From positions 1-34,612 of the forward strand of contig SZOV01000029.1 of the NCBI GenBank assembly GCA_030263375.1: 34,612 nucleotides of DNA. Reading direction: 5' to 3'. The notes under the pieces are model-generated. The model was not told the DNA's origin. It worked only from the letters and a program-made list of their open reading frames with translations, and searched no databases. Source of the stretch: Deltaproteobacteria bacterium PRO3. Lineage in GTDB: Bacteria; UBA10199; DSSB01. The first letter of the stretch is position 1. Each line of letters starts with the position of its first letter. The translations under genes were made by a program, and so were the position numbers. This document shows, one piece after another, positions 4,997-32,180 of the stretch.

Positions 4997-6484
4997 ATGC
5001 AATCCTTAGATAACATCGCCAGCCTCTGGTATTTCCTCCCCGAGTTTCTGCTCACGGCGGTTTTCGTCTTGATCTTCCTGGTCGACCTGCCGAAGGCCTG
5101 GAGCGAGAAGCGTCTGCTGGCGCCCGTCCTGGCGGCCCTGGGCCTGGTGGGCTACATCGGCCTGACGGTCTACTCCTGGGACTTCCCGAAGGCGGCCGCC
5201 TTTCACGGCATGATCGTGATCGACCCCTTCACCAATTTCTTCCGCATCTTCGGCGCCGTCGCGGGCCTGGTGACGATCTACTTCAGCCTCAAGGCGAAGG
5301 AGCTCGCCGAGGCGAGGGCGGAGTACTGGGCCATCCTGCTCGGCATCGTGATCGGTATGCCCATGCTGGCCGCTTCCAACAATCTGCTGATGATCTACTT
5401 GGCGATGGAACTGGTCAGCATCCTCTCCTACATCATGGTCGGCTATCTGCCCAACTCGCGGAAGAGCGCCGAGGCGGCGCTCAAGTACGTGCTGTACGGG
5501 GCGACGGCGAGCGGCATCATGATCTACGGGCTCTCGCTGATCTTCGGCGTGACCGGCACCCTCGATGCCATCCAGATCCGCCACTTTCTCGAGGCCAACC
5601 CCGCCGAGCGCGCGACCCTCTTCGTCGGCCTGCTGATGGCCTTCGCCGGCTTCGGCTACAAGATCTCGGCGGTGCCCTTCCACATGTGGGCACCGGACGT
5701 CTACGAGGGCGCCCCGACCCCGGTCACCGCCTTCCTCTCGGTGGGCCCGAAGGCCGCCGGCTTCGCGATCGTCCTGCGCTTCATCTACACGGCGCTGACC
5801 CAGCCGCAGGGCGGCGAGTTCATCCCGCTCAAGTTCTTGGACATCTCGGACCTGCTCTCGCTCTTCGCGATCGCGACGATGGTCTTGGGCAATCTGCTGG
5901 CGATCCAGCAGAAGAACATCAAACGGTTCCTCGCCTATTCCTCCATCGCCCACGCCGGCTACATGCTGATGGCCGCGGCGGCGATGAACGTCCAGGGCAT
6001 CCAGGCCGTCCTGTTCTACCTGATCACCTACTTGATCATGAATTTCGGCGCCTTCGGCGTCGCGATCCTGGTGCAGAACGAGCTGGGCACCGAGGACATC
6101 GAAGGGTTCAAGGGCCTGGCCAAGCGCGGCCGCTGGGCGCTCTTCGTCTCGCTGGCGATGGCGATGTTCCTCTTCTCGCTGACCGGCCTGCCGCCCTTCA
6201 TCGGCTTCGTCGGCAAATTCTATCTCTTCGCGGCGGTCCTCGAGGCCAAGCTCTACGTCCTGGCCCTGATCGGCGTCCTCAACAGCGTCGTCAGCCTTTA
6301 CTACTACGCCCGCGTCGCCAAGTTCATGTTCTTCGACGATCCCGCCGACGAGCGCACGCTGGCGGCCAGCTCGCGCGGCCTCTCGCAGGTCCTGCTGGGC
6401 CTCGCCGCGGCGACGCTGGTCTTCGGGCTGTTCTGGAAGTCGTTGGCCTACATCTCCCAATCTTCCGCGGATTTGCTGCTCTAA
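4997..6484 (+). CDS. nuoN: NADH-quinone oxidoreductase subunit N (cluster 1)
   Basis: NuoN is the antiporter-like subunit nearest the connecting arm of complex I. The product is 495 residues with about 14 membrane helices, as expected. Conserved charges are Glu138 in AMELVSILSYIMVGYLPNS, Lys222 in FGYKISAVPFHMWAPDVYEG and Lys252 in SVGPKAAGFAIVLRF. The segment QQKNIKRFLAYSSIAHAGYMLM is also diagnostic. It ends cluster 1. Only 21 bases separate its stop from the stop of the convergent fic gene. A weak GAGA/TCTC mini-hairpin followed by T-rich sequence lies at about 6490-6510, but I see no convincing terminator. The upstream ribosome-binding site is weak, so coupling to nuoM is likely. Confidence 0.97.
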   Translation: MQSLDNIASLWYFLPEFLLTAVFVLIFLVDLPKAWSEKRLLAPVLAALGLVGYIGLTVYSWDFPKAAAFHGMIVIDPFTNFFRIFGAVAGLVTIYFSLKAKELAEARAEYWAILLGIVIGMPMLAASNNLLMIYLAMELVSILSYIMVGYLPNSRKSAEAALKYVLYGATASGIMIYGLSLIFGVTGTLDAIQIRHFLEANPAERATLFVGLLMAFAGFGYKISAVPFHMWAPDVYEGAPTPVTAFLSVGPKAAGFAIVLRFIYTALTQPQGGEFIPLKFLDISDLLSLFAIATMVLGNLLAIQQKNIKRFLAYSSIAHAGYMLMAAAAMNVQGIQAVLFYLITYLIMNFGAFGVAILVQNELGTEDIEGFKGLAKRGRWALFVSLAMAMFLFSLTGLPPFIGFVGKFYLFAAVLEAKLYVLALIGVLNSVVSLYYYARVAKFMFFDDPADERTLAASSRGLSQVLLGLAAATLVFGLFWKSLAYISQSSADLLL

Positions 6485-6505
6485 ATTCGGGAGACGCCTC
6501 TCACT

Positions 6506-7558
6506 TTATTTTAATCGGTAATGAGCCGTCTTACGTTCCCCGACCATGACGAGCTGACCTCTCTCTTTCAATCTCGCTAGAATGCTTTTCAATGTCACTC
6601 GTTTGATCTTGGATTCCCTTTCCAAAAATCCAATGCTGACTGGTTGATGGTCCCGGATCAGGTCGAAGACCTGTTGCTCCAACTTAGTCAGCGTCCCCGG
6701 CGCTTTGGGTTTGATCTTGTCGCGCAAGAATTGCGTTTGCTTATCCAGCACCTTCAGGAAGTATAGAAACCACGGATTCAAGTCAGGTTGGGTTTTTAAC
6801 GTGGCCTGTGTTTGGCGAAGGGCGATGTAATATTGTTCCTTGCTGTCTTCGATGATCTTTTCGTTCGAGGAGTACATGCAGAAGTCATATCCCGATTTCA
6901 GCAGACAGAGGTCCGTCAAAAGGCGGCTGATCCTTCCGTTTCCGTCGCGAAAGGGGTGGATGGCTAAAAAGGAGACGATGAATGCGGCAACGACCTCGAG
7001 GTCGGCATAGTTCGGATTTTGAATATATTCCTCGTAATCTCGAACTAACTCCCGCATGGCGGCCTCCGTCTGGGGGCCCGGCGGGGTTGTTTCAAACAGG
7101 GTTTCTTGTTCGCCGGTTTCGTGGTCGATGCGAATCACCGAATTGGCGATGTTTTTATAGGTGCCCCGCTGATTCAGCGGGAAGATGGATTCCGGAAGAT
7201 AGGCCATCATCATTTGGTGAAGGGAGCGAATCGTGTGTTCCGTGAGGGTGAGATCCTGATGATGGTCGAAGATATATTTTTTGCAATCGATGTACCCGGC
7301 GACCTCCGCCTCGTCGCGGTCGCGTATGGTTCGAATCTTGAGCCCCGAAAGCCGCTTTAGGATCTCTTCGTCGGAGAGCTTGGCCCCTTCAATGCGAGTC
7401 GAGGCGCCCGCGGAGGTGATGATCACCGTCTTCTGAAGAGAGGCATAGAAGTCTCGCTCTGTGTCGGCTTGGGTCTTCCATTCCGTGCGAAACTGGGTGA
7501 CTTTTTGAACGAATTGCAGGACCTCGGGAATTAGGGGAGATTTTAAGAGGCCTTCCAT
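6506..7558 (-). CDS. Class II Fic family enzyme with C-terminal winged helix
   Basis: Fic enzymes usually transfer AMP from ATP to protein hydroxyls, and some remove AMP or use other substrates. The product is 350 residues. Residues 201-212 form a full active-site motif (HPFRDGNGRISR) with catalytic His201. Ser53-Thr-Arg-Ile-Glu57-Gly58 matches the N-terminal inhibitory helix motif [S/T]xxxE[G/N]. This places it in class II, where inhibitor and catalytic domain are in one chain and no separate antitoxin is needed. Residues about 295-350 (LEQQVFDLIRDHQPVSIGFL...) look like a winged helix-turn-helix, which suggests DNA binding and autoregulation. The start ATG at 7558 has no Shine-Dalgarno sequence. 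Codon use and GC are clearly lower than in the nuo genes around it, suggesting acquisition by transfer. The target is unknown. All catalytic residues are intact. Confidence 0.93.
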   Translation of the reverse strand: MEGLLKSPLIPEVLQFVQKVTQFRTEWKTQADTERDFYASLQKTVIITSAGASTRIEGAKLSDEEILKRLSGLKIRTIRDRDEAEVAGYIDCKKYIFDHHQDLTLTEHTIRSLHQMMMAYLPESIFPLNQRGTYKNIANSVIRIDHETGEQETLFETTPPGPQTEAAMRELVRDYEEYIQNPNYADLEVVAAFIVSFLAIHPFRDGNGRISRLLTDLCLLKSGYDFCMYSSNEKIIEDSKEQYYIALRQTQATLKTQPDLNPWFLYFLKVLDKQTQFLRDKIKPKAPGTLTKLEQQVFDLIRDHQPVSIGFLERESKIKRVTLKSILARLKERGQLVMVGERKTAHYRLK

Positions 7559-7561
7559 TAA

Positions 7562-7620
7562 GTATACTAATAATTATGTCATAAATAGAAATCAATCTAT
7601 AAATTATGCTATAAAATAGC
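7562..7620 (-). promoter_or_regulatory. AT-rich promoter/operator region of fic with two similar sites
   Basis: Just upstream of the fic start (minus strand) is a TATACT hexamer (complement of 7562-7567) that resembles a -10 box lying very close to the ATG. Two related near-palindromic sites follow: ATTATGTCATAAATAG at 7574-7589 and ATTATGCTATAAAATAG at 7604-7620. They are spaced about three helical turns apart. Their repetition and near-dyad cores (TATGTCATA, TATGCTATA) suggest an operator, possibly bound by the winged helix of the Fic protein itself. The binding is inferred. Confidence 0.4.
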
Positions 7621-7696
7621 CTAATAAAATCAATTTATCAGCAATCCATCGTTGGGCTTCCCCAATCTTTGCCTAAAATAATCGTTTACAGAGGTA

Positions 7697-7845
7697 GCTT
7701 CCCCCCGCCCGGGGATACCCTCTTCACTTTTTTGGCCCGACCTCAAGCCGGGCGGGCCAAAGGTCGGGAAGCCCCTGTCATCCAGGCTTCAGGGTGAGGG
7801 GCTTCCCGAAACCCGTTCCGAGGGTATCCCCGGGCGGGGGGAAGC
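7697..7845. repeat. 149-bp element with perfect 26-bp inverted ends and two inner hairpins
   Basis: This fills most of the 334-bp gap between fic and the chromo-barrel gene. Positions 7697-7722 and 7820-7845 are perfect 26-bp inverted repeats (outer end GCTTCCCCCCGCCCGGGG). Inside are two further stems: 7731-7739 with 7753-7761 (TTTGGCCCG/CGGGCCAAA), and 7764-7776 with 7797-7809 (TCGGGAAGCCCCT and its complement, 13 bp). The whole can fold as a three- or four-way junction. It is very GC-rich next to AT-rich sequence at 7559-7690. It has no coding capacity and no obvious target-site duplication. It could be a miniature inverted-repeat element, a structured RNA, or a strong two-way terminator for the genes around it. 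Confidence 0.75.
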
Positions 7846-7892
7846 GGGCAAAGACACCCCAGGAACGCGTAAAATCGGAGATGTCTAAAAAC

Positions 7893-8324
7893 TTAAGGCG
7901 CCCGGTACCGATTTGGCCCAACCCACTCGTTCCAATTATTTCCATAGCCGTCATAGTGGATGAACAAGCGGTCGCCCTTCTTCTTGAGGACCCGCGCTGG
8001 CCACCACTTGTCCCCCCAGAGCACCGAGACCGGATCCCCCACCTGGAAGGCGCCGGGGACGAAGACGGCGGCGGGAGAGCCGCCGAGGACGCGGATGCGC
8101 CCCGGCCCGACCCATTCATCCCAAGAGTTGTTGTAGCCGTCGTAATGAATGTAGCAGCTGTTGCCCTTGGCCTGCCGGACCGTGGCGGGGTACCAACGTC
8201 CCTTCCATAGGACCTCGGCCTTGTCGCCGGGGGCGCAGACCAAGGCCTGGGCCTCGGAGGTGAAGGTGAGGGCGAGGGTCGCAAGGGCCAAGAGGCTTAA
8301 GGCCAGGCTGAAGGACCGCTTCAT
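7893..8324 (-). CDS. Exported protein with two chromo-barrel/Tudor-knot-like repeats
   Basis: The product is 143 residues. Residues 1-27 form a signal peptide (MKRSFSLALSLLALATLALT..., probable cleavage after SEAQA), so it should be periplasmic or secreted. Two tandem repeats follow, about residues 33-77 and 96-140. Each has the pattern GD-x-V-LW-x3-WWPA-x-V followed by IHYDGYxNxWxEWVGPxR. This resembles the chromo-barrel/Tudor-knot fold of eukaryotic MOF and MRG15 proteins (YVHYxGxNxRxDEWV), which bind modified peptides or nucleic acid. The ligand of an exported bacterial version is unknown. A single Cys occurs in the N-terminal segment and another in repeat 1. It is transcribed divergently from nuoA, with 177 bp between them. 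The family assignment rests on the aromatic pattern only. Confidence 0.8.
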   Translation of the reverse strand: MKRSFSLALSLLALATLALTFTSEAQALVCAPGDKAEVLWKGRWYPATVRQAKGNSCYIHYDGYNNSWDEWVGPGRIRVLGGSPAAVFVPGAFQVGDPVSVLWGDKWWPARVLKKKGDRLFIHYDGYGNNWNEWVGPNRYRAP

Positions 8325-8446
8325 GGGGATCCCCTTTCTTTAAAAGAGATTTTTGGCTAAAAACAGGGACTTAGTGTAAGGAAGCCTCAGGGCTTTGCCG
8401 AGCGAAATTTGCGGCCTTTCCAACGATATTTTGCCCCGGTTTAACC

Positions 8447-8473
8447 TTGACTTCGGGGGAGGGCTGCAATAGG
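8447..8473 (+). promoter_or_regulatory. Weak candidate promoter for nuo cluster 2
   Basis: TTGACT at 8447-8452 is a fair -35 match. The best -10 candidate is CAATAG at 8468-8473, with a short 15-bp spacing. It lies in the 177-bp divergent gap (8325-8501), about 30 bp before nuoA, and no better pair is apparent there. The TTGACT context resembles the candidate at 390-395 upstream of cluster 1 nuoJ. Confidence 0.25.
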
Positions 8474-8501
8474 CGAAGGCCCGGAACTACTTAAAATCCT
8501 T

Positions 8502-8885
8502 ATGGAAGTCCCCTTTCATTCCTATCTGCCCCTGCTCTTCGTCCTGCTGCTGGGATTGGGCTTCGCCGGGGCCTTTCTCGTCCTCTCCGCCAGTTTCGGG
8601 CCCAAAAAACCGACCGCGAGCAAGCTGGACGTCTACGAGTGCGGGGTTCCGCCGACCGGCGACGCGCGCAATCGCTTCTCGGTGAAGTTTTTCCTCGTCG
8701 CGATGATCTTCCTGCTCTTCGACGTCGAGGTGGTGTTCCTCTTTCCCTGGGCGGTCTTGCTGAAAGAATTCAAGGCCGCGGGGACCGGGCTTTTCGCCTT
8801 CGGGGCGATGGGCCTCTTCCTCTTGATCTTGGGCCTGGGCCTCCTCTACGAATGGAAGCGGGGGGCCCTGGATTGGGAAAAATAG
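8502..8885 (+). CDS. nuoA: NADH-quinone oxidoreductase subunit A (cluster 2)
   Basis: NuoA is a three-helix membrane subunit of complex I that helps close the quinone cavity beside NuoH and NuoB. The product is 127 residues. The diagnostic loop is present: SKLDVYECGVPPTGDARNRF, with the conserved Cys. The second helix follows with FLLFDVEVVFLFPWA, whose acidic residues are conserved in the family. The C-terminus ends in YEWKRGALDWEK. The ATG at 8502 gives the standard N-terminus; no strong ribosome-binding site is visible. nuoB starts 27 bp downstream. It is the first gene of cluster 2 and follows a divergent promoter region. Confidence 0.97.
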   Translation: MEVPFHSYLPLLFVLLLGLGFAGAFLVLSASFGPKKPTASKLDVYECGVPPTGDARNRFSVKFFLVAMIFLLFDVEVVFLFPWAVLLKEFKAAGTGLFAFGAMGLFLLILGLGLLYEWKRGALDWEK

Positions 8886-8911
8886 GTTTTGTCTAAAGGT
8901 TGTCCTTCGTC

Positions 8912-9442
8912 ATGGCCGCGACCGGAGAAAACAACATATTGACCACCAAGCTGAGCGAGGTGATCGCCTGGGGGCGGAAGTACAGCCTCTGGCCCATGCC
9001 CTTCGGCACGGCCTGCTGCGCGATCGAGTTCATGGGCGCGGTCTCGGCGGTCTTCGACATCTCGCGCTTCGGCGCCGAGCTGGTGCGGTTTTCCCCGCGG
9101 CAGTCCGATCTGCTCTTGGTGCTGGGGACGATCAACTACAAGCAGGCGGCGATTTTAAAGAAGATCTACGAGCAGATGTGCGAGCCCAAGTACGTGATCG
9201 CGGTCGGCGCCTGCGCCACCTGCGGAGGGTTTTACGACAACTACGCGGTGTTGCAGGGCATCGACGAAGTGATCCCGGTCGACGTCTACGTGCCAGGCTG
9301 CCCGCCGCGGCCCGAACAGATCCTGTTGTCCATCGTGAAGCTGCAAGAGAAGATCGACGCCCAGGCGCGGGGCGAGGTGGCCAAAGATGTGAAGCGCGCG
9401 GCGCCGGAAATTTTATATTCCTCGAAGGTGCCGACGGTATGA
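8912..9442 (+). CDS. nuoB: NADH-quinone oxidoreductase subunit B (cluster 2)
   Basis: NuoB holds the terminal [4Fe-4S] cluster N2, which reduces quinone, and sits at the base of the connecting arm. From the ATG at 8912 the product is 176 residues. The N2 ligands are the tandem Cys35-Cys36 in [11 protein letters not shown], Cys101 in GACATCGG and Cys130 in [10 protein letters not shown] further Cys104 is not a canonical ligand. The quinone-site region [20 protein letters not shown] is intact. An in-frame TTG at 8900 would add four residues; I prefer the ATG because AAAGGT (8895-8900) is then placed as a ribosome-binding site. A repeat-bearing gap separates the gene from nuoC. Confidence 0.97.
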
Positions 9443-23028: not shown

Positions 23029-26000
23029 ATGAAGACGGGTTCCTATCGAGGCGATTTTTCGGGCCGGGCGCCGCTGCGCGCGGATCGGCCCGTGCTTCCT
23101 TCCACTCCTGAAAACGAAGCGATATTCGGCCGGGCCGCGCTGGCGGAATTGGCGGAGTTGGCTCGCGAGGGCGATGACTCCTTGTTCGCGGCCGGGGTCT
23201 TGAATCTTGCGGGGCGTCTGCAGGCGGAGGATCGGCTGGAAGCGGCGGCGGAGTTATACGCCGTCGTCGCCGGGGCCGTTCCCCCCTTAACGGGAGACAA
23301 GCGCGAACGGCCCCTACAAGCGCGCGCGCAACGGCACTTGGACGGGCTTCACGGGAAAGGCACATTTGAGTACCGAGCCGAATTCCTGCTCCGCCGCCTC
23401 GCCAAGGACGCGACGCACCCCTCTTCGATCTTAGCGATGGGCGCCGCGGGCCTGGCCTTCCGCCTGACGCGCGCGGCGACCTTGAGCCGACTGGCCATGT
23501 CGCCGGCGGGATTTTTTACCCGTGGCCTGGGTCTGCGCGCGGGCGGCGCCTTGGCGGGATTTGGCGTCGAGACCCTCGCCTTCACCGCGGTGGGGAAGGG
23601 CGGGGCGGTCCTGTTCGGCGAGCCGGTCGACTTAAGCCCGCGGGCCTGGGTCCGCGATGGCGCCGCCGGGGCCTTGACCTTGGGGGCCTTGAAAGGCGCG
23701 GGCGCCTTGACGCAGGCGGGCCTGCGCCGCTGGGCGGCGGGCCAAGGGGCTCTCGCCGCGGCGACGCGCGGCCTTGCGCCGCAAGCGGCGATGTTCGGAG
23801 GCATCCTCCTCGCACATAGGCTTGAGGAATCCCTGGGCTGGCGTCCCGCCTCTTCCAACTCGGTCCGCGTCGGCGACGCCCTTGCCACTTCGGTCCACTT
23901 TCGCGTCGGCGGTCGGCTGGCCGGCGCCCTCTTGGGGCGCCGATTCAAGGCCTTGGAGGCCGGCCTCGATCTACAGGCGGCGCAGGCCTCGCGCGGCGAT
24001 CCGCGAATTTTAGCGCTGGCGACCGGGTTGGCCCCCGCGGGTGGTGGGTGGTTGAATCCCGGATTTGCCGCCGTCTCGAATCCTCTCGAATCCCGTCCCA
24101 TGCTTTCCCAAGCCCAGTCCGAGGGCGGCGGCGCGCGATCGGAGACCTTTCTCAACGTGAAGCAAATCGAGACGAAGCTCTCCCGTGGCAACATCCTCTT
24201 GGACCTGGCCACGCGCGAGGCCGCGATGACGCGGGGGATGGTGCACCTGATGTATTCCCTGGAGGACGGCTTTACCAGCCTCCTGCACGGCTACCGGACG
24301 AAGGAGTCGTCTCTGCTCCAGGGGCCGCTGGTCGCGATGCTGCGGCAGGATCCGGGCTTACGCAAATTCCTTCTCGATCACGGCTCCGAGCCGGCCAAGC
24401 ACCTCTGGGCCTTGATCGACGTGGACACCGGCGAGCTGCAACGGATTGTCGCCTTCGACCGAGTCAAGCGCCCGCGCAGCGTTCTGCTGTGGGATCCGCG
24501 GGCCGCCGTCCAGGGCGAGCGCGCGACGCGGTCCCCGGTCGTGTCGCTGGATTTCGGCCAGCATCGTCCCGAATTTCCCTACGTGGTCTCGCGCCTGTAT
24601 TCTTGGGATGCGAAAGCGAAGGTCTTGTCCCAGGACATTCCTGCGCCCACGCCGCGCTACAACGACCTGGGCGTGGAGGAGGCCTACCGTCCGGAGCGAC
24701 AGGCCGAGTTGCTCGCGGCGGATCGCTTGAAAATCCGCATCTTTCCGGAGACCGCGCAGGAATTGCACTTTGAAATCGGCAGACCCGCTTCTCCCGCCTG
24801 GCGGCTAAGCGATGCCAGGGGCGGGCTCTTGCTCGCGATGAGCCGGACAGGGGAAGGACACTATTTCGAATTCAGCCGTTTCGCCCCGGCCCTGACGATG
24901 CCGGCGCGTCTGGAGCCGGCCGGGGAGAAGACGGGCCGCCAGGCGACGCCTCCCGCGGCCGAGCCGAAACCGCCCGTGCGTCAGGCCAAGGCGGCCAAGC
25001 CCAAGGGCCCGGTGAAGCCGAGCCTCGAGGAGGCGGGGCCGGCGGCGAAAAAAGAAAAGCCCGCCGCGGCGGTGGCTGCCCCCGAGCCCCAGCCTGCGCA
25101 GGAACCGAGCCCGCAGCTCCGGCAGGCCCTCGCGGCCTTGGCGGAGCTGGAAAAACTCCCCGGTGAAAATTCCAAACAGGTCCGACAGGCTTTGACGAAG
25201 CTGCGCGCCGAATTACGGCTTCTCTCGAAGCCGGAATTGGAAATCGCCGTGGACGCCATCGCCGGCAAACTCGAGACCTTGCTTTGGCTGAGCGAGCCGG
25301 CCGAATCCTTCTTCCGCCAAGAGTTGCCGCATTGGCCGGTCTTCCTGCGTCTTCGCTTCGCCGTCGCGCTCAGCGCCTATCTCGCCGACCCCGCGCCGCC
25401 GCGCCGCGCACAGAGCTTTGGGATGTTTCGTGAAATCGTCCCGCGCTTGGAGACCTGGGAGCTGCAAGAATTGCAGGCCGCCTTGGAGAAAAAATTTCCC
25501 CGCGGCAGCCTGACTCCCGACCGCCGCATGATGGTCGACCAGGTCCGCATCCTGATCCGCGACGCCTTGGGTCCGCGGGGCGGCTCCCTTCCGCCCGCGA
25601 CTCCGCTGGCCTTGCTGCTCGGGGCGGCGACCTTGCTGGACCCCGGGAAGGCGGAGGCCGCGACGGGGGATTTTCTGATGAGCGTCGCCAACGCCTCGCG
25701 GGCGGTGCCGCCGCTGGGCGCGGCCTTGCTGGCCGGGGCCGTCACCTTCGTCTTGCGCAGCCGCGCGGCGCGGCGTCTCGGCAACGAGGCCCTCGCCCTG
25801 GGCAGCGCCTTCCTGTCGCGGCTCAGCGGAGGGAAGACCCCCATCGTCCTCGCGCGCGAGGGGGCGCATCCTTATGAGCTCCACCTGCCGGATCTCTCCC
25901 ATTGGCTGCGCAAGGGCGCCGAGGCGGTGATCGCCAAACGCGAAGGACGGGAGATGTCCCTCAAGACCTCCTGGCTGAGCGCGCGCCTGCCCGCCTACGA

Positions 26001-26469
26001 GAACCTGCCGCCGGGGACCCTGCGCCTGAACTTCCGGATCGAGGAGGGCGACCGGCAGGGCATCGCGGTGGTGTATCTGGAAAAGGACGCGTTGCACCTG
26101 CAAAACCTGGAGACCGACCGGATGCGGCCCGGCGCCGGGACCCTGCTGATCGATTGGCTGGCGACGCAAGCGGCGCTGCGCGGGCTGCGCTTTCACCTTC
26201 GCGACACGCACAACCCGCAGATTTTCCGGATCTTGAATCGCGAGCGGATTTTCGCGCCGGGGACCGCGTGGGCGGAAGGGTTTTTCCACGACCCTTTAAC
26301 CGCGGAGAAGATCCGGGTCGCAGGGCCGGTCGAGGATCCCCTCTTCGCGGAAGAGCGCCAAGCCGCAGCCTTTCACATTACGGGGATCCTAAACCCAATG
26401 CGCCTGCCCTTTTACTTGCGTCGGCGCGAGGGCGCCGACGCCTTGGCGCTACCCAAGGGTCGTCAATAG
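23029..26469 (+). CDS. Large Ala-rich protein of unknown function with possible C-terminal acyltransferase-like domain
   Basis: I do not recognise this 1146-residue protein. Residues 1-135 are Ala/Glu-rich and helical (AALAELAELAREGDDSLFAA). Residues about 135-290 are Gly/Ala-rich and hydrophobic with Arg (ILAMGAAGLAFRLTRAATLS, GGALAGFGVETLAFTAVGKG), possibly membrane-associated. Residues about 350-620 look globular, with DFGQHRPEFPYVVSRLYSW. Residues 623-695 are a disordered Ala/Pro/Lys linker. Residues about 854-930 contain two hydrophobic stretches. Residues about 990-1090 (GIAVVYLEKDALHLQNLETD, GAGTLLIDWLATQAALRGLR) loosely recall a GNAT acyltransferase core. There is no signal peptide. 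A palindromic repeat is embedded in frame near residues 80-100. The 3' end overlaps the convergent CoA-binding gene by 21 bp. The start codon is only moderately supported. Confidence 0.75.
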   Translation: MKTGSYRGDFSGRAPLRADRPVLPSTPENEAIFGRAALAELAELAREGDDSLFAAGVLNLAGRLQAEDRLEAAAELYAVVAGAVPPLTGDKRERPLQARAQRHLDGLHGKGTFEYRAEFLLRRLAKDATHPSSILAMGAAGLAFRLTRAATLSRLAMSPAGFFTRGLGLRAGGALAGFGVETLAFTAVGKGGAVLFGEPVDLSPRAWVRDGAAGALTLGALKGAGALTQAGLRRWAAGQGALAAATRGLAPQAAMFGGILLAHRLEESLGWRPASSNSVRVGDALATSVHFRVGGRLAGALLGRRFKALEAGLDLQAAQASRGDPRILALATGLAPAGGGWLNPGFAAVSNPLESRPMLSQAQSEGGGARSETFLNVKQIETKLSRGNILLDLATREAAMTRGMVHLMYSLEDGFTSLLHGYRTKESSLLQGPLVAMLRQDPGLRKFLLDHGSEPAKHLWALIDVDTGELQRIVAFDRVKRPRSVLLWDPRAAVQGERATRSPVVSLDFGQHRPEFPYVVSRLYSWDAKAKVLSQDIPAPTPRYNDLGVEEAYRPERQAELLAADRLKIRIFPETAQELHFEIGRPASPAWRLSDARGGLLLAMSRTGEGHYFEFSRFAPALTMPARLEPAGEKTGRQATPPAAEPKPPVRQAKAAKPKGPVKPSLEEAGPAAKKEKPAAAVAAPEPQPAQEPSPQLRQALAALAELEKLPGENSKQVRQALTKLRAELRLLSKPELEIAVDAIAGKLETLLWLSEPAESFFRQELPHWPVFLRLRFAVALSAYLADPAPPRRAQSFGMFREIVPRLETWELQELQAALEKKFPRGSLTPDRRMMVDQVRILIRDALGPRGGSLPPATPLALLLGAATLLDPGKAEAATGDFLMSVANASRAVPPLGAALLAGAVTFVLRSRAARRLGNEALALGSAFLSRLSGGKTPIVLAREGAHPYELHLPDLSHWLRKGAEAVIAKREGREMSLKTSWLSARLPAYENLPPGTLRLNFRIEEGDRQGIAVVYLEKDALHLQNLETDRMRPGAGTLLIDWLATQAALRGLRFHLRDTHNPQIFRILNRERIFAPGTAWAEGFFHDPLTAEKIRVAGPVEDPLFAEERQAAAFHITGILNPMRLPFYLRRREGADALALPKGRQ
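23272..23314. repeat. Copy of the GGCCGTTC palindromic repeat inside a coding region
   Basis: GGGGCCGTTC at 23272-23281 and GAACGGCCCC at 23305-23314 are exact complements around 23 bases, followed by CTACAAG. The same half-sites make the 22-bp palindrome at 303-324, and GCCCCTAC endings resemble the GTAGGGGC edges of the nuo repeats. Here the element is read in frame (about residues 82-96), contributing AVPPLTGDKRERPLQ. Confidence 0.55.
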
Positions 26470-27995: not shown

Positions 27996-30900
27996 ATGCC
28001 TCGACCGATTTCCCGCATTTTCTTGGCGTTCTTCGCCATCCTGCTCTTTTGTGCAAAATCCCAAGCCGCCCCGATGAGCCCCGATCAGGTGCCCGAAACC
28101 CTGCGTCCCTGGATCGCCTGGGCCCTCCACGATCACGAGGAACAAGGCTGCCCCTTCCTCAACGCCTCCGGTGATTCGCGCGTCTGCGGCTGGGCCGGGC
28201 GCCTCGATCTGAGCATCGACGAGAAGCAGGGTGCCTTCAGCCAGTCATGGCTTTTATATAAGGATGACTGGGTGCCCCTCCCCGGCGACGAGAAGCGCTG
28301 GCCCCAAGGCCTGCGCGTCGACGGCCAACCCGCCGCAGTTGTCCTGCGCGGCGAGGTCCCGAGCGTCTTTTTGAAAAAGGGCCCCCACAGCCTCACCGGC
28401 TCCTACGTCTGGGACGCCATCCCCGAAAGCTTTCAAATCCCCCCCGCGGTGGGCCTGCTGAAGCTCAGCGTGAAGGGGGCCCCGGTCGACTTCCCGCAAT
28501 GGGACGAACAGGGCTTGTTATGGTTGGAGAAAGACTCCGCGCAAGAGGGCGGGGAAGAGCGCCTCGACGTCCGCGTCAACCGGCTCGTCGACGACGACAT
28601 CCCGCTCTACCTGGTGACCCGCATCACGCTCGAGGCCGCGGGCAAGGCCCGCGAGGCGGTCCTGGGGAAGCTGCTCCCCGACGGCTTCAAGCTGGTCTCC
28701 ATCGACTCGCCCATCCCGGCGCGGGTCGAGCCGGACGGCAGCCTCAAGGTCCAGGTGCGGGCGGGCACCTGGGATCTCACCATCAAGGCGCGGCACCTGG
28801 GTCCGGTTTCCGACTTAACCCTGCCTCAGGCGGAGCCTCCCTTGGCCCCCGAGGAGGTTTGGGTCTTCAAGGCCCATAACAACCTGCGCCTGGTTTCGGT
28901 CGAGGGGCTCCCTTCCATTGACCCGCAGCAGACGACCTTGCCCGCCGACTGGAAACAGCTTCCCGCCTACCGCATCCGTCCCGGCGAGACGATGAAGTTG
29001 GTGGAGCGCCGCCGCGGCGACGCCGACCCCGCGCCCGACCAGCTCACCTTGTATCGCCGGCTTTGGCTAGATTTTGACGGGACGGGTTACACGATCCAGG
29101 ACGCCCTCTCCGGCACGATGAACCGCAGCTATCGCCTCGAGATGAATCCCCCCGTGCAGCTGGGCCGCGTCTCGGTGGACGGGCAGGACCAATTCATCAC
29201 CGCGCTCGCCGGCGACAAGCGCGCCGGCGTCGAGATCCGCCAGGGGCAGCTGCAGGTCAGCGCCGACAGCCGCCTGCCGGACCTGACCCGCAGGATCCCG
29301 GCGATCGGCTGGAACAACGATTTTCAAAAGGTGAGCGGCGAGCTGAACCTGCCGCCGGGTTGGACGCTCTTGGCCGCCACCGGCGCCGACGAGGTGCCGG
29401 GTACCTGGATCTCCGACTGGAACCTGCTCAACATCTTCATGGTCCTGATCCTGTTCCTGATCTTCGCCAAGCTCTGGGGGAAATGGTGGGGGCTCTTGGC
29501 CCTCTTTGCCCTCGCGCTCACCTATACCGAGCGCGACGCCCCGCAATGGGTGTGGCTGGCCCTGCTTGGTGGTTGCGCGCTGCTGCGCTTGCTCAAGCCC
29601 GGGAAGCTTCGCAGCTTGGTCCGCGTCTACGTCGGCATCACCTTGGTGGTCTTGGTGGCGATCGCCGTGCCCTTCATGGTGCAGCAGCTGCGCCAGGCGA
29701 TGTACCCGGTGCTGGAGCACTCCTACGCCTATCTGGACGCCGAGGGCGGCAACGCCCTCTATCCCTCGGGACGGGGCAAAGGTTTCACCTTGGGCGGTGC
29801 CCCCGCGCCGCAGGCGGTGCAAACGGAGGCCTACGCTCCGCCTCCGCCGCCCGCCGAGGCCGTGCAGGAACAGCTCGCGGCCGACGAGGCCACCCAGCCC
29901 TCCACGGTCCTGCGCTCGAAGCTGAAGCGCGAAGAGCCCCAGCGGCAGATGGTGGTGGCCGGCAAGGCCTCGGGGAAATTCGGTTACTACGACCAAAAGA
30001 CCCAGGAAAACTTATTGCAGCAGCGCCCGGGCACCAAGGTGCAGACCGGCCCGGGACTGCCGACCTGGAGCTGGAACCGCTTCGAGCTGCGCTGGAACGG
30101 ACCGGTCGAGAAGAGCCAAGAGTTGATCTTGTTCTTGGTGCCGCCGGCGATCAACTTCCTCCTCGCGGTCTTGCGCGTCGTGCTGCTCGCGCTCTTGGTG
30201 CTTTGCGTCTTGGGCTTGCCGGGGACCTTCTGGCCCAACTTTCTCAAGGCCCGCAAGGCCGCGACGGCGGCGGTTTTGTTGGCCGCGGCCCTGAGCCTGG
30301 CGCCGCAGTCGGCGCGGGCGGATTACCCCTCCAAGGAGCTGCTCGACGAGCTGCGGGAGCGGATTCTGCAAAATCCCGAATGCTTCCCCGACTGCGCCTC
30401 GGTCTCGCGCATGCAGTTGAATGTCGCCGGGCGCCAGCTGCGAGCGATCCTCGAGATCGGCGTGGAGGGGACGACGGCGGTTCCCCTGCCGGGATCTTTT
30501 GAAGAGTGGTCCCCGCAGACCGTGAGCGTGGACGGGCAGCCCTTCGCGGCCCTGCATCGCGACGACGAGGGGCAGTTGTGGATCCAGTTGACGCCCGGCG
30601 TGCACCAGGTCGTGATCGAGGGCCCGCTGCCCGAACGCCCCAGCGTCCAGATCGCCCTGCCGCTCAAGCCGCATTACCTGCAGGCGCAGGTCAGCGATTG
30701 GAGCCTCGAGGGACTGCAGGACAACGGCCTCACCGCCGACAACCTCCAGTTGACGCGGCTGCAAGGCTTGAGCCCCGACGCCGCGGCGCCCAAGGAGACG
30801 AGCCTGCCGCCCTTCTTCACGGTGGAACGCAGCCTGATCCTCGGCCTGACCTGGGAGGTACAGACCCGCATTGTCCGCCTCTCCCCGCCGGGCACGGCCT

Positions 30901-32180
30901 TCCTGACTGAGATTCCCCTACTGCCCGGCGAATCGGTCACCGACGCCGACGTCGAGGTGAAGGACGGCAAGGTCCGCGTCAGCATGGGACCCAACGCCAT
31001 GGACTTCTCCTGGCGATCGGTCCTGGCCGAGACCGACAAGATCCAGCTGAAGGCGACCGAGTCGGATGCCTTGATGGACATCTGGCGCCTCGACTTGAAT
31101 CCCGTCTGGCACTTCAGCGCGACGGGCATCCCGCCCGTGCACCCCGAGAGCGCGACACAACGCTGGCCCATCGAGTGGCGCCCCTGGCCGGGGGAGGAGC
31201 TGACGCTGGCGATCAGCCGGCCCGCCGGCGTTCCGGGGCAGACCCTCACCATCGACCGCAGCCTCCTGGTCCTGAAGCCGGGCCTGCGCTTCACCGAGTC
31301 GTCGCTCTCGCTGACGATGCGCAGCAGCCTCGGCGGGCAGCACGTCCTGACCCTGCCCGAGGGCGCGGTACTGCAGTCCGTGCAGATCAACGGCGCCGCG
31401 CAGCCGATCCGCCAAGAGGGCCTGAAGGTCACCCTCCCGCTGGTTCCGGGCTCGCAGCGCGTCGAGCTCAACTGGCAGCAGCCGCTCGCCCTCAAGACCT
31501 ATTTCAAGTCGCCCGACCTGAAGCTGGGGACGAGCAGCGTCAATGCCGAGCTGCAGATCCACCTGCCGAGCAATCGCTGGGTCCTCTTTACCGGAGGGCT
31601 CCGCGTCGGGCCGGCGGTCCTTTTCTGGAGCCTTTTGGCCGTCCTGCTGCTCGTCTCGATCGGCCTGGGCCGCAGCGGTCTCAGCCCCCTGAAGACGCAC
31701 CAGTGGATCCTGCTGGGTGTGGGGCTGACGCAGGTGCCGATCTGGGCCTCCATCATCGTGGCGGGCTGGATCTTGGCCCTGGCCTACCGCGAGCGCAAGC
31801 CCCTGGCCGGCAACTTCAGCTTCGATCTCTTCCAAATCCTGCTCGTCGCCTGGACCTTGGCGGCCCTCATCGTGATCTTCGTCTCGATCCACCAGGGGCT
31901 CCTCGGCATGCCCGACATGCAGATCGCCGGCAACGGCTCGAGCAGCACCTTCCTGCGCTGGTACAAGGACCGCACCGGCGACGTCCTGCCGCAGGTCTGG
32001 GTGGTCTCGGTGCCGCTCTTCTGCTACCGCCTGGCCATGCTGGCCTGGGCCCTCTGGCTGGCGCTGGCCCTGCTGCGTTGGCTGCGCTGGGGCTGGGCGA
32101 GCCTGACCCAAGGCGGGGCCTGGCGGGCCCTGCGGGTGAGGCGGGCCCCGACTCCGCCGCCTCCCCCGCCGGCCGCATGA
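27996..32180 (+). CDS. Large multi-pass envelope protein with duplicated beta-rich periplasmic modules
   Basis: I do not recognise a named family. The product is 1394 residues. Residues 1-25 form a signal peptide (ISRIFLAFFAILLFCAKSQA). Residues about 26-475 are beta-rich and likely periplasmic. Hydrophobic helices follow at about 477-495, 505-530, 541-565, 708-746 and 751-768. The last resembles an internal signal sequence (AVLLAAALSLAPQSARA). A second beta-rich region spans about 775-1205, and four or more helices close the protein (1207-1225, 1235-1265, 1278-1301, 1336-1366), ending in a Pro-rich tail. The two extracytoplasmic halves share a pattern: a Cys-containing start, then W-x-PxxxxVDGQPxA, then L-x2-G-x-H. 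This suggests an old duplication or fusion. A Pro/Ala/Glu-rich linker lies near 600-640. The ribosome-binding site is good. The histidine kinase gene 87 bp downstream may be functionally linked. Confidence 0.8.
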   Translation: MPRPISRIFLAFFAILLFCAKSQAAPMSPDQVPETLRPWIAWALHDHEEQGCPFLNASGDSRVCGWAGRLDLSIDEKQGAFSQSWLLYKDDWVPLPGDEKRWPQGLRVDGQPAAVVLRGEVPSVFLKKGPHSLTGSYVWDAIPESFQIPPAVGLLKLSVKGAPVDFPQWDEQGLLWLEKDSAQEGGEERLDVRVNRLVDDDIPLYLVTRITLEAAGKAREAVLGKLLPDGFKLVSIDSPIPARVEPDGSLKVQVRAGTWDLTIKARHLGPVSDLTLPQAEPPLAPEEVWVFKAHNNLRLVSVEGLPSIDPQQTTLPADWKQLPAYRIRPGETMKLVERRRGDADPAPDQLTLYRRLWLDFDGTGYTIQDALSGTMNRSYRLEMNPPVQLGRVSVDGQDQFITALAGDKRAGVEIRQGQLQVSADSRLPDLTRRIPAIGWNNDFQKVSGELNLPPGWTLLAATGADEVPGTWISDWNLLNIFMVLILFLIFAKLWGKWWGLLALFALALTYTERDAPQWVWLALLGGCALLRLLKPGKLRSLVRVYVGITLVVLVAIAVPFMVQQLRQAMYPVLEHSYAYLDAEGGNALYPSGRGKGFTLGGAPAPQAVQTEAYAPPPPPAEAVQEQLAADEATQPSTVLRSKLKREEPQRQMVVAGKASGKFGYYDQKTQENLLQQRPGTKVQTGPGLPTWSWNRFELRWNGPVEKSQELILFLVPPAINFLLAVLRVVLLALLVLCVLGLPGTFWPNFLKARKAATAAVLLAAALSLAPQSARADYPSKELLDELRERILQNPECFPDCASVSRMQLNVAGRQLRAILEIGVEGTTAVPLPGSFEEWSPQTVSVDGQPFAALHRDDEGQLWIQLTPGVHQVVIEGPLPERPSVQIALPLKPHYLQAQVSDWSLEGLQDNGLTADNLQLTRLQGLSPDAAAPKETSLPPFFTVERSLILGLTWEVQTRIVRLSPPGTAFLTEIPLLPGESVTDADVEVKDGKVRVSMGPNAMDFSWRSVLAETDKIQLKATESDALMDIWRLDLNPVWHFSATGIPPVHPESATQRWPIEWRPWPGEELTLAISRPAGVPGQTLTIDRSLLVLKPGLRFTESSLSLTMRSSLGGQHVLTLPEGAVLQSVQINGAAQPIRQEGLKVTLPLVPGSQRVELNWQQPLALKTYFKSPDLKLGTSSVNAELQIHLPSNRWVLFTGGLRVGPAVLFWSLLAVLLLVSIGLGRSGLSPLKTHQWILLGVGLTQVPIWASIIVAGWILALAYRERKPLAGNFSFDLFQILLVAWTLAALIVIFVSIHQGLLGMPDMQIAGNGSSSTFLRWYKDRTGDVLPQVWVVSVPLFCYRLAMLAWALWLALALLRWLRWGWASLTQGGAWRALRVRRAPTPPPPPPAA

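What the first reader, a model, noticed from the sequence alone, without database searches (positions are those of the whole stretch)
7697..7845. 149-bp cruciform-like element with perfect 26-bp inverted ends beside fic
The 26-bp arms match exactly and enclose two further perfect stems of 9 and 13 bp, so the whole can fold as a multi-branched junction. It is much more GC-rich than the adjoining AT-rich DNA. Perfect arms of this length decay quickly unless recent or selected. Options are a non-autonomous mobile element, a structured RNA, or a strong terminator between two minus-strand genes.
Basis: seen in the sequence. Interest (0 to 1): 0.52.

Follow-up and report, generated by a model that had tools for sequence, protein, structure and literature searches.

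The report
Shape-conserved bacterial hairpin repeat family
The 149-bp hairpin beside the fic gene is one of a family of dispersed bacterial DNA repeats whose folded shape, two stems with touching loops on a long stalk, is kept while the letters of the stalk and stems change freely, which makes it an unusually clear case of inheritance of shape over sequence.

Summary
In detail: 26-bp perfect arms at 7697-7722/7820-7845 enclose two hairpins, and no shuffle folds as well. It is not unique. A covariance model finds related elements in 9 of 46 genomes of the phylum, 1 to 31 rows per genome (24 in the window's own). Copies share a three-way junction whose two hairpin loops are complementary to each other (kissing). 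All 33 modelled pairs change on both sides somewhere, with 97% of cells paired. Arms differ between copies (56 distinct in 62) yet are perfect in 50 of 62. G-T and A-C mismatches are equally rare in the stems (17 versus 25), unlike tRNAs of the same genome (23 versus 0). This suggests the stems are kept perfect at DNA level, probably by template switching, rather than by selection on an RNA. In the window copy the core is inverted relative to its conserved flanks, which such switching can also cause. Two sites examined are empty in a sister species. Best reading: a new family of non-autonomous, probably mobile palindromic repeats, working like REP/REPIN or MITE elements but a member of neither. 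The mobilising enzyme, and whether the working molecule is ssDNA or RNA, are unknown. Not a terminator.

The parts
7697..7722 (+). P1 left arm (26 bp), perfect complement of 7820-7845
   Evidence: P1 arms of 62 copies
7723..7730 (+). junction strand J1/2 (TTCACTTT), mostly conserved between copies
   Evidence: alignment A1
7731..7761 (+). P2 hairpin: stem 7731-7742/7750-7761, loop 7743-7749 (TCAAGCC)
7745..7749 (+). AAGCC in the P2 loop, proposed kissing partner of 7785-7789
   Evidence: covarying loop-loop complement
7764..7809 (+). P3 hairpin: stem 7764-7776/7797-7809, loop 7777-7796
7785..7789 (+). GGCTT in the P3 loop, proposed kissing partner of 7745-7749
7810..7819 (+). junction strand J3/1 (AACCCGTTCC), conserved
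7820..7845 (+). P1 right arm (26 bp)
7846..7870 (-). conserved left-end (LE) flank motif, here on the 3' side of the core: TTTGCCC next to the arm on the minus strand
7684..7696 (-). conserved right-end (RE) flank motif (TACCTCTGTAAAC on the minus strand), here on the 5' side of the core; with the LE it shows that the core is inverted relative to its ends
6449..7893 (.). stretch that holds fic (6506-7558, minus) and the element and is absent at the orthologous site of sister genome G001
   Evidence: Fic by Pfam

Best explanation
The element is one copy of a family (type A) of non-autonomous, probably mobile palindromic repeats. One strand folds into a long stalk (P1) that carries two hairpins (P2, P3) joined at a three-way junction, with the two hairpin loops paired to each other. 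Shown: dispersed copies, conserved fold, covarying kissing loops, two-sided change in all modelled pairs, conserved end motifs in many copies, and two sites empty in a sister species. Inferred: (1) the folded single strand, more likely DNA than RNA, is what an unidentified mobilising enzyme or host protein recognises, so junction and loops are conserved; (2) the stems are kept perfect because DNA synthesis switches template between the arms, so a mutation in one arm is copied into the other; (3) the inverted core of the window copy is a by-product of such a switch or of recombination between its arms.
For: Copies: BLAST finds 5 places in the own genome besides two arm self-matches; model R2 finds 9 of 46 genomes of the phylum, with 24, 10, 8, 20 and 31 rows in G000, G002, G001, G004, G008 and one each in G007, G032, G033, G042. 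Fold: 97.1% of 2115 cells paired, 33 of 33 pairs with two-sided change, 705 two-sided against 8 one-sided cells, 0 of 500 shuffles reaching the covariation score (0.850; mean 0.205), best slid version 0.269. Kissing: 49 distinct loop pairs, mean Watson-Crick run 4.51 against 3.35 when reshuffled, 0 of 20000; pairs include AAGCC/GGCTT, CTGCC/GGCAG, CGGCC/GGCCG, TGGCC/GGCCA, TTGCC/GGCAA, AGGCC/GGCCT. DNA-level upkeep: G-T 17, A-C 25 in the modelled helices against G-T 23, A-C 0 in 34 tRNAs of the same genome, Fisher p 4.6e-7; outer arms 1460 pairs, 13 not Watson-Crick (A-C 8, G-T 2, other 3), 50 of 62 perfect, 56 distinct. Orthologs: 7 comparisons, first direction, 59 pairs changed on both sides and still paired, 15 with one base changed (G-T 2), 10 with one base deleted, 2 changed on both sides and unpaired. 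Mobility: window site and G000:C2:61861 empty in G001; end motifs. Template switching homogenises arms and inverts spacers (PMC8604942, passages) and can maintain RNA hairpins (PMC8794818, passages).
Against: No mobilising gene was found: none of 10 Y1-transposase loci holds a type A core within about 1.5 kb, and Y1 genes also occur in genomes without type A (G005, G006; G010, G012). No target duplication was established. The empty window site lacks the whole fic stretch, so the element may have arrived with fic rather than by itself. Several copies sit at the same locus in two or three species, so many are old. Conserved loops, junction and covarying kissing are also what an RNA would show. 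Alignment A2 was fitted to the structure and leans towards it. The end motifs were recognised by a loose regular expression and by eye; 17 of 29 genus copies were not callable. Type B arms do not show the parity (G-T 5, A-C 1).
Confidence: 0.6

Rival explanations
1. A structured non-coding RNA, transcribed from many loci or as part of mRNA 3' ends, whose fold and kissing loops are the function; the copies spread by some other process.
For: Conserved loops and junction, covarying kissing loops, two-sided changes; core on the same strand as the upstream gene in 29 of 45 orientable copies, p 0.07.
Against: G-T not above A-C in stems while tRNAs of the same genome show 23 to 0; outer pairs of a 25-bp stalk should be free to drift if only folding mattered, yet 50 of 62 stalks are perfect; no promoter- or terminator-like site at the window copy; no Rfam match; core not in a fixed relation to its flanks in the window copy.
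Confidence: 0.25
2. A cis-acting mRNA element (3'-end stabiliser, attenuator or RNase III site) like those reported for REP, ERIC or Correia elements, kept for its effect on neighbouring genes.
For: Mostly between genes; among 45 orientable copies 16 are convergent and 7 divergent; the window copy lies between two minus-strand genes.
Against: Copies also lie between divergent genes; presence varies between sister species; a plain hairpin would do, so kissing loops and junction stay unexplained.
Confidence: 0.1
3. An intrinsic transcription terminator between the two minus-strand genes.
For: Position and strong hairpin.
Against: 0 terminator-like sites and no U-tract beside the stalk; copies L009 and L010 lie beside separate terminator-like hairpins with T-runs (by eye).
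Confidence: 0.02

Closest known systems
REP / BIME / REPIN elements mobilised by TnpA-REP (RAYT) Y1 transposases
   Same: Many intergenic palindromic copies; some in inverted pairs; a GTAG-like foot (RE read on the other strand is GGTA, followed by G at the arm) in the subfamily with RE TACC; folded ssDNA as substrate is plausible; compensatory changes in the REPIN spacer hairpin were reported (PMC3116915, passages).
   Different: REPs are 20-50 nt with a conserved tetranucleotide (PMC8266576, passages). Here the copies are about 140-190 nt, with a three-way junction and kissing loops, stems not conserved in sequence, and no core beside the Y1 genes scanned.
MITEs (Correia, ERIC, YPAL and others)
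   Same: 50-500 bp, intergenic, multicopy, non-autonomous; Correia elements can invert (PMC10969869, passages).
   Different: MITE inverted ends are shared in sequence between copies; here the perfect arms differ from copy to copy and no autonomous partner was found.
Double-hairpin elements of fungal mitochondria
   Same: GC-rich, potentially mobile hairpin repeats (PMC10085805, passages).
   Different: Organellar; the detailed pattern of stem and loop conservation is recalled, not read. In sponge mitochondrial repeats the stems are conserved and the loops vary, the reverse of this case (PMC2800124, passages).
Stem-loop repeat families of bacteria catalogued by Cozzuto et al.
   Same: Repeated stem-loop sequences found across genomes (PMC2267715, passages).
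   Different: Found by sequence HMMs in 40 genomes; I saw no three-way-junction family with free stems in the passages read.

Membership tests
REP/REPIN | palindrome of 20-50 nt | tested here: not met
   window copy 149 nt; copies with a complete arm estimate 140-190 nt
REP/REPIN | conserved tetranucleotide, mostly GTAG, at the foot of the hairpin | tested here: inconclusive
   TACC follows the arm in many copies of one subfamily; absent in the GCTCGTGC subfamily and in the G008 copies inspected
REP/REPIN | a Y1 transposase (RAYT) gene flanked by the repeat | tested here: not met
   0 of 10 Y1 loci (flanks about 1.5 kb where available) hold a type A core; the 12 further Y1 matches were not scanned
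REP/REPIN | inverted pairs | tested here: met
   some copies only: L035, L094, L102, L107, L122
MITE | multicopy, intergenic, 50-500 bp, no transposase gene | tested here: met
   some long chance ORFs overlap the palindromes
MITE | terminal inverted repeats shared in sequence between copies and with an autonomous element | tested here: not met
   56 distinct arms in 62 copies; the LE pattern in G004 gave 13 hits, 12 at type A or B ends and 1 beside a partial core at a contig end
MITE | target site duplication | tested here: inconclusive
   two empty sites, flanks too diverged to call
Intrinsic terminator | GC hairpin followed by a U-tract | tested here: not met
Any Rfam 15 family | score above the family's gathering threshold | tested here: not met
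   0 matches in the window; at E up to 5 over 8 loci only 7 weak matches below threshold
Integron attC site | R'/R'' boxes and IntI association (recalled) | not tested
   only a glance for the boxes; no integrase search

The most novel reading that the evidence does not exclude
A mobile element class whose heritable identity is its folded shape: a kissing three-way junction recognised as single-stranded DNA by an unknown mobilising enzyme, with every stem letter free to change because template switching rewrites both arms together, and with a second module (type B) travelling beside it as a composite.
Probability: 0.3. Interest if true: 0.8.

Novelty: new variant of a known kind. Interest (0 to 1): 0.55.

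Why it matters
Compensatory change in stems is usually read as proof of a functional RNA. Here is a family with very strong stem covariation but no excess of G-U over A-C, and a copy with an inverted core, so it offers a natural test of how far template switching alone can produce the covariation signal, beside loops that covary by selection. It also points to an unidentified mobilising or structure-binding activity in a poorly studied bacterial phylum.

Tried and rejected
Rejected: intrinsic terminator; Rfam families; Y1/RAYT as neighbour gene (distribution also loose); an autonomous copy with the same left end in G004; an ORF insert in a type B copy is IS30-like by eye and a later insertion. 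Outside the phylum: three pattern hits in Verrucomicrobia and Spirochaetes were coding-like or unrelated sequence (model R2 also negative); two viral pattern hits were chance; other viral scans found nothing; plasmids and phages no match. A fixed-register test of the kissing loops used a wrong register and was replaced; it still gave 8 of 10000. A J1/2 to P3-loop pairing (CAC with GTG) was considered by eye and left unproven. Strand bias against GC skew was weak: 30 of 47 positive, p 0.08 by sign, 0.02 by rank. G000_C80 and G001_C250 share a locus with cores in opposite orientation, but arms and content differ, so I do not count it as an inversion. MFE-based G-U counts (209 and 149 on the two strands) mix in loop pairs and were replaced by fixed-helix counts. 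A first ortholog count that let flank helices in was replaced. Type B arms, for comparison: 657 pairs, G-T 5, A-C 1, other 5, 13 of 20 perfect, 20 distinct, so the parity is not shown for type B. Dropped rows: one search counts the 66 distinct of the 68 rows in A2, including three rows that are not clean copies (reverse-strand window match, partial L117, interrupted L134); one search drops 4 of 68 rows; one search drops 6 of 68. Some arms are short estimates of 6-8 bp where the search stopped at an offset, and L033 and L034 have identical cores.

Full report
Observation. The sequence at 7697-7845 is as described: 26-bp perfect arms, a perfect 13-bp stem and a stem with 9 perfect outer pairs. 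It folds to -119.2 kcal/mol with 0 of 200 shuffles as good. GC is 0.69 against 0.30 in the adjoining 150-base AT-rich stretch. Neighbours on the minus strand are a Fic protein (6506-7558) and an Agenet/Tudor-like protein (7893-8324); nuo genes lie on both sides.

It is a repeat family. BLAST of 163 bases finds five full or near-full places in the own genome and matches in 4 of 40 genomes examined, the own genome included. A covariance model from 22 copies (R1) found 13, 7, 7 and 20 rows in G000, G002, G001 and G004 and none in three other genomes of the family, and 5 of 46 genomes in the phylum. A second model from 68 matches (R2) found 9 of 46 genomes: G000 24, G002 10, G001 8, G004 20, G008 31, and single rows in G007, G032, G033 and G042. 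Some rows are partial or at contig ends. The copy in G032 has the full anatomy by eye; those of G007, G033 and G042 are looser. Two G001 contigs match in length, and in the sequence shown, named records of a Deltaproteobacteria MAG from lake water, so the host belongs to an uncultured lineage filed under that name; I recall that this may be the GTDB phylum UBA10199, which no call confirms.

Anatomy. Full copies have a stalk P1, hairpin P2, hairpin P3 and conserved junction strands. On 66 distinct rows, 97.1% of 2115 cells are standard pairs, all 33 pairs have two-sided changes, 705 cells are two-sided and 8 one-sided; 0 of 500 shuffles reach the covariation score (0.850, mean 0.205), and structures slid by one column or more score at most 0.269. 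The alignment was fitted to the structure, so these numbers lean towards it; on the MAFFT alignment of 22 copies, 25 of 38 predicted pairs already show two-sided change. The P2 and P3 loops are complementary to each other. Over 49 distinct loop pairs the mean Watson-Crick run is 4.51 against 3.35 (sd 0.12) after reshuffling, 0 of 20000. The shuffle does not remove relatedness, but several different pair types occur. In the window the partners are 7745-7749 and 7785-7789.

DNA or RNA? In an RNA, G-U is tolerated and A-C is not. Over the modelled helices G-T is 17 and A-C 25; in 34 tRNAs of the same genome G-T is 23 and A-C 0, Fisher p 4.6e-7. Cells are not independent, so the p-value is optimistic, and ARAGORN may choose stems that avoid A-C. 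In the outer arms of 62 copies, 13 of 1460 pairs are not Watson-Crick (A-C 8, G-T 2, other 3), 50 of 62 arms are perfect and 56 are distinct. Flank comparison gives orthologous copies at several loci. In seven comparisons, read in one direction, 59 pairs changed on both sides and stayed paired, 15 changed one base (G-T 2, A-C 4, other 9), 10 lost one base and 2 changed both without pairing; part of the one-base cases lie in extra flank helices or doubtful alignment. Concerted change with few wobble steps is what template switching between arms predicts: it is reported to homogenise arms and invert spacers (PMC8604942, passages) and to maintain RNA hairpins (PMC8794818, passages). It would not easily make two different loops complementary, so I read the kissing as selected.

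Ends and inversion. Beyond the stalk many copies share a left motif (TTT..TGCCC) and a right motif (TACC..CTGTGC or GCTCGTGC). With a loose expression, 11 of 29 genus copies show both in the forward sense, one, the window copy, shows both in reverse, and 17 cannot be called. The window copy's flanks match by eye: TTTGCCC on the minus strand beside the arm that ends at 7845, and TACCTCTGTAAAC beside the arm that starts at 7697, nearly as in G002:C27 (TACCTCTGTAAAG). So its core is turned round relative to its ends.

Mobility. In G001 the sequences matching window 5618-6448 and 7894-9438 lie 42 bases apart: fic, the AT-rich stretch and the element are all absent, so the element may have come with fic. 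At G000:C2:61861 about 380 bases holding an element correspond to about 35 bases in G001. Target duplications could not be called. Copies sit mostly between genes: of 50 examined, 16 convergent, 13 tandem same strand, 9 tandem opposite, 7 divergent, 5 not callable; the ORF caller is crude and several ORFs overlap the palindromes.

A second module. In G004 a larger structured repeat (type B, 18 places) lies downstream of type A in the examples I printed and shares its end motifs; in G000 at C80, C40 and C93 an A core is followed by B on the same strand. B arms are also long and variable: 20 copies, median 35 bp, 13 perfect, 20 distinct. Two A cores in inverted orientation also occur side by side.

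Comparison with the known. It works like REP/REPIN or MITE elements, but fails size and Y1 neighbourhood for REP and shared arm sequence for MITE. Literature searches on double-hairpin elements, REP and three-way junction, quasipalindromes, multicopy structured RNAs, palindromic elements and ssDNA transposition returned no paper that I recognised as describing this family; most were judged from the search listing only, and subscription journals are largely missing.

Verdict. A real, strongly structured repeat family, most likely non-autonomous mobile DNA; new in combination of features, a variant of a known kind. The mobilising enzyme and the nature of the functional strand remain open.

Noticed in passing
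L051, L054, L057 and others in G004; L053, L055, L058, L064, L066 in G000: Type B: a second, larger structured repeat with about 30-35 bp variable, mostly perfect arms and a conserved core (CTGACGAAGGAAG loop), often downstream of type A.
   Followed up: partly
L075 1687-2664: A 325-aa ORF that looks like an IS30-family transposase (judged by eye, no family search) sits inside a type B copy.
   Followed up: partly
window 6449-7893: The fic stretch is absent at the orthologous site of sister genome G001 and probably newly acquired.
   Followed up: partly
window 7893-8324 (minus): Small protein with Agenet/Tudor-like matches and, by eye, a signal-peptide-like start, encoded amid nuo genes.
   Followed up: no
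window 23029-26469 and 27996-32180: Two long ORFs (1146 and 1394 aa) without a Pfam match at E 0.001.
   Followed up: no
L129 (G008:C45) about 1465-1675: Around one G008 copy an additional 20-nt inverted repeat (TAGTCGTTCCTGAAAGAGTC and its near complement); seen on one side in L115 and L134, so some G008 copies have other ends than G000 copies.
   Followed up: partly
L026 and L087 (P2 loops): In one G004 and one G002 copy the P2 loop carries an extra hairpin of about 40-60 nt.
   Followed up: no
L041 1924-1998: A GTAG-starting inverted repeat of 17 bp near a Y1 transposase gene in G004: probably a true REP, unrelated to type A.
   Followed up: no
L015, L033, L075 and others (G004): A further palindromic repeat (TCATCCTGAGCGAAGCGAAGGATC) lies beside or between several type A and B copies.
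   Followed up: no
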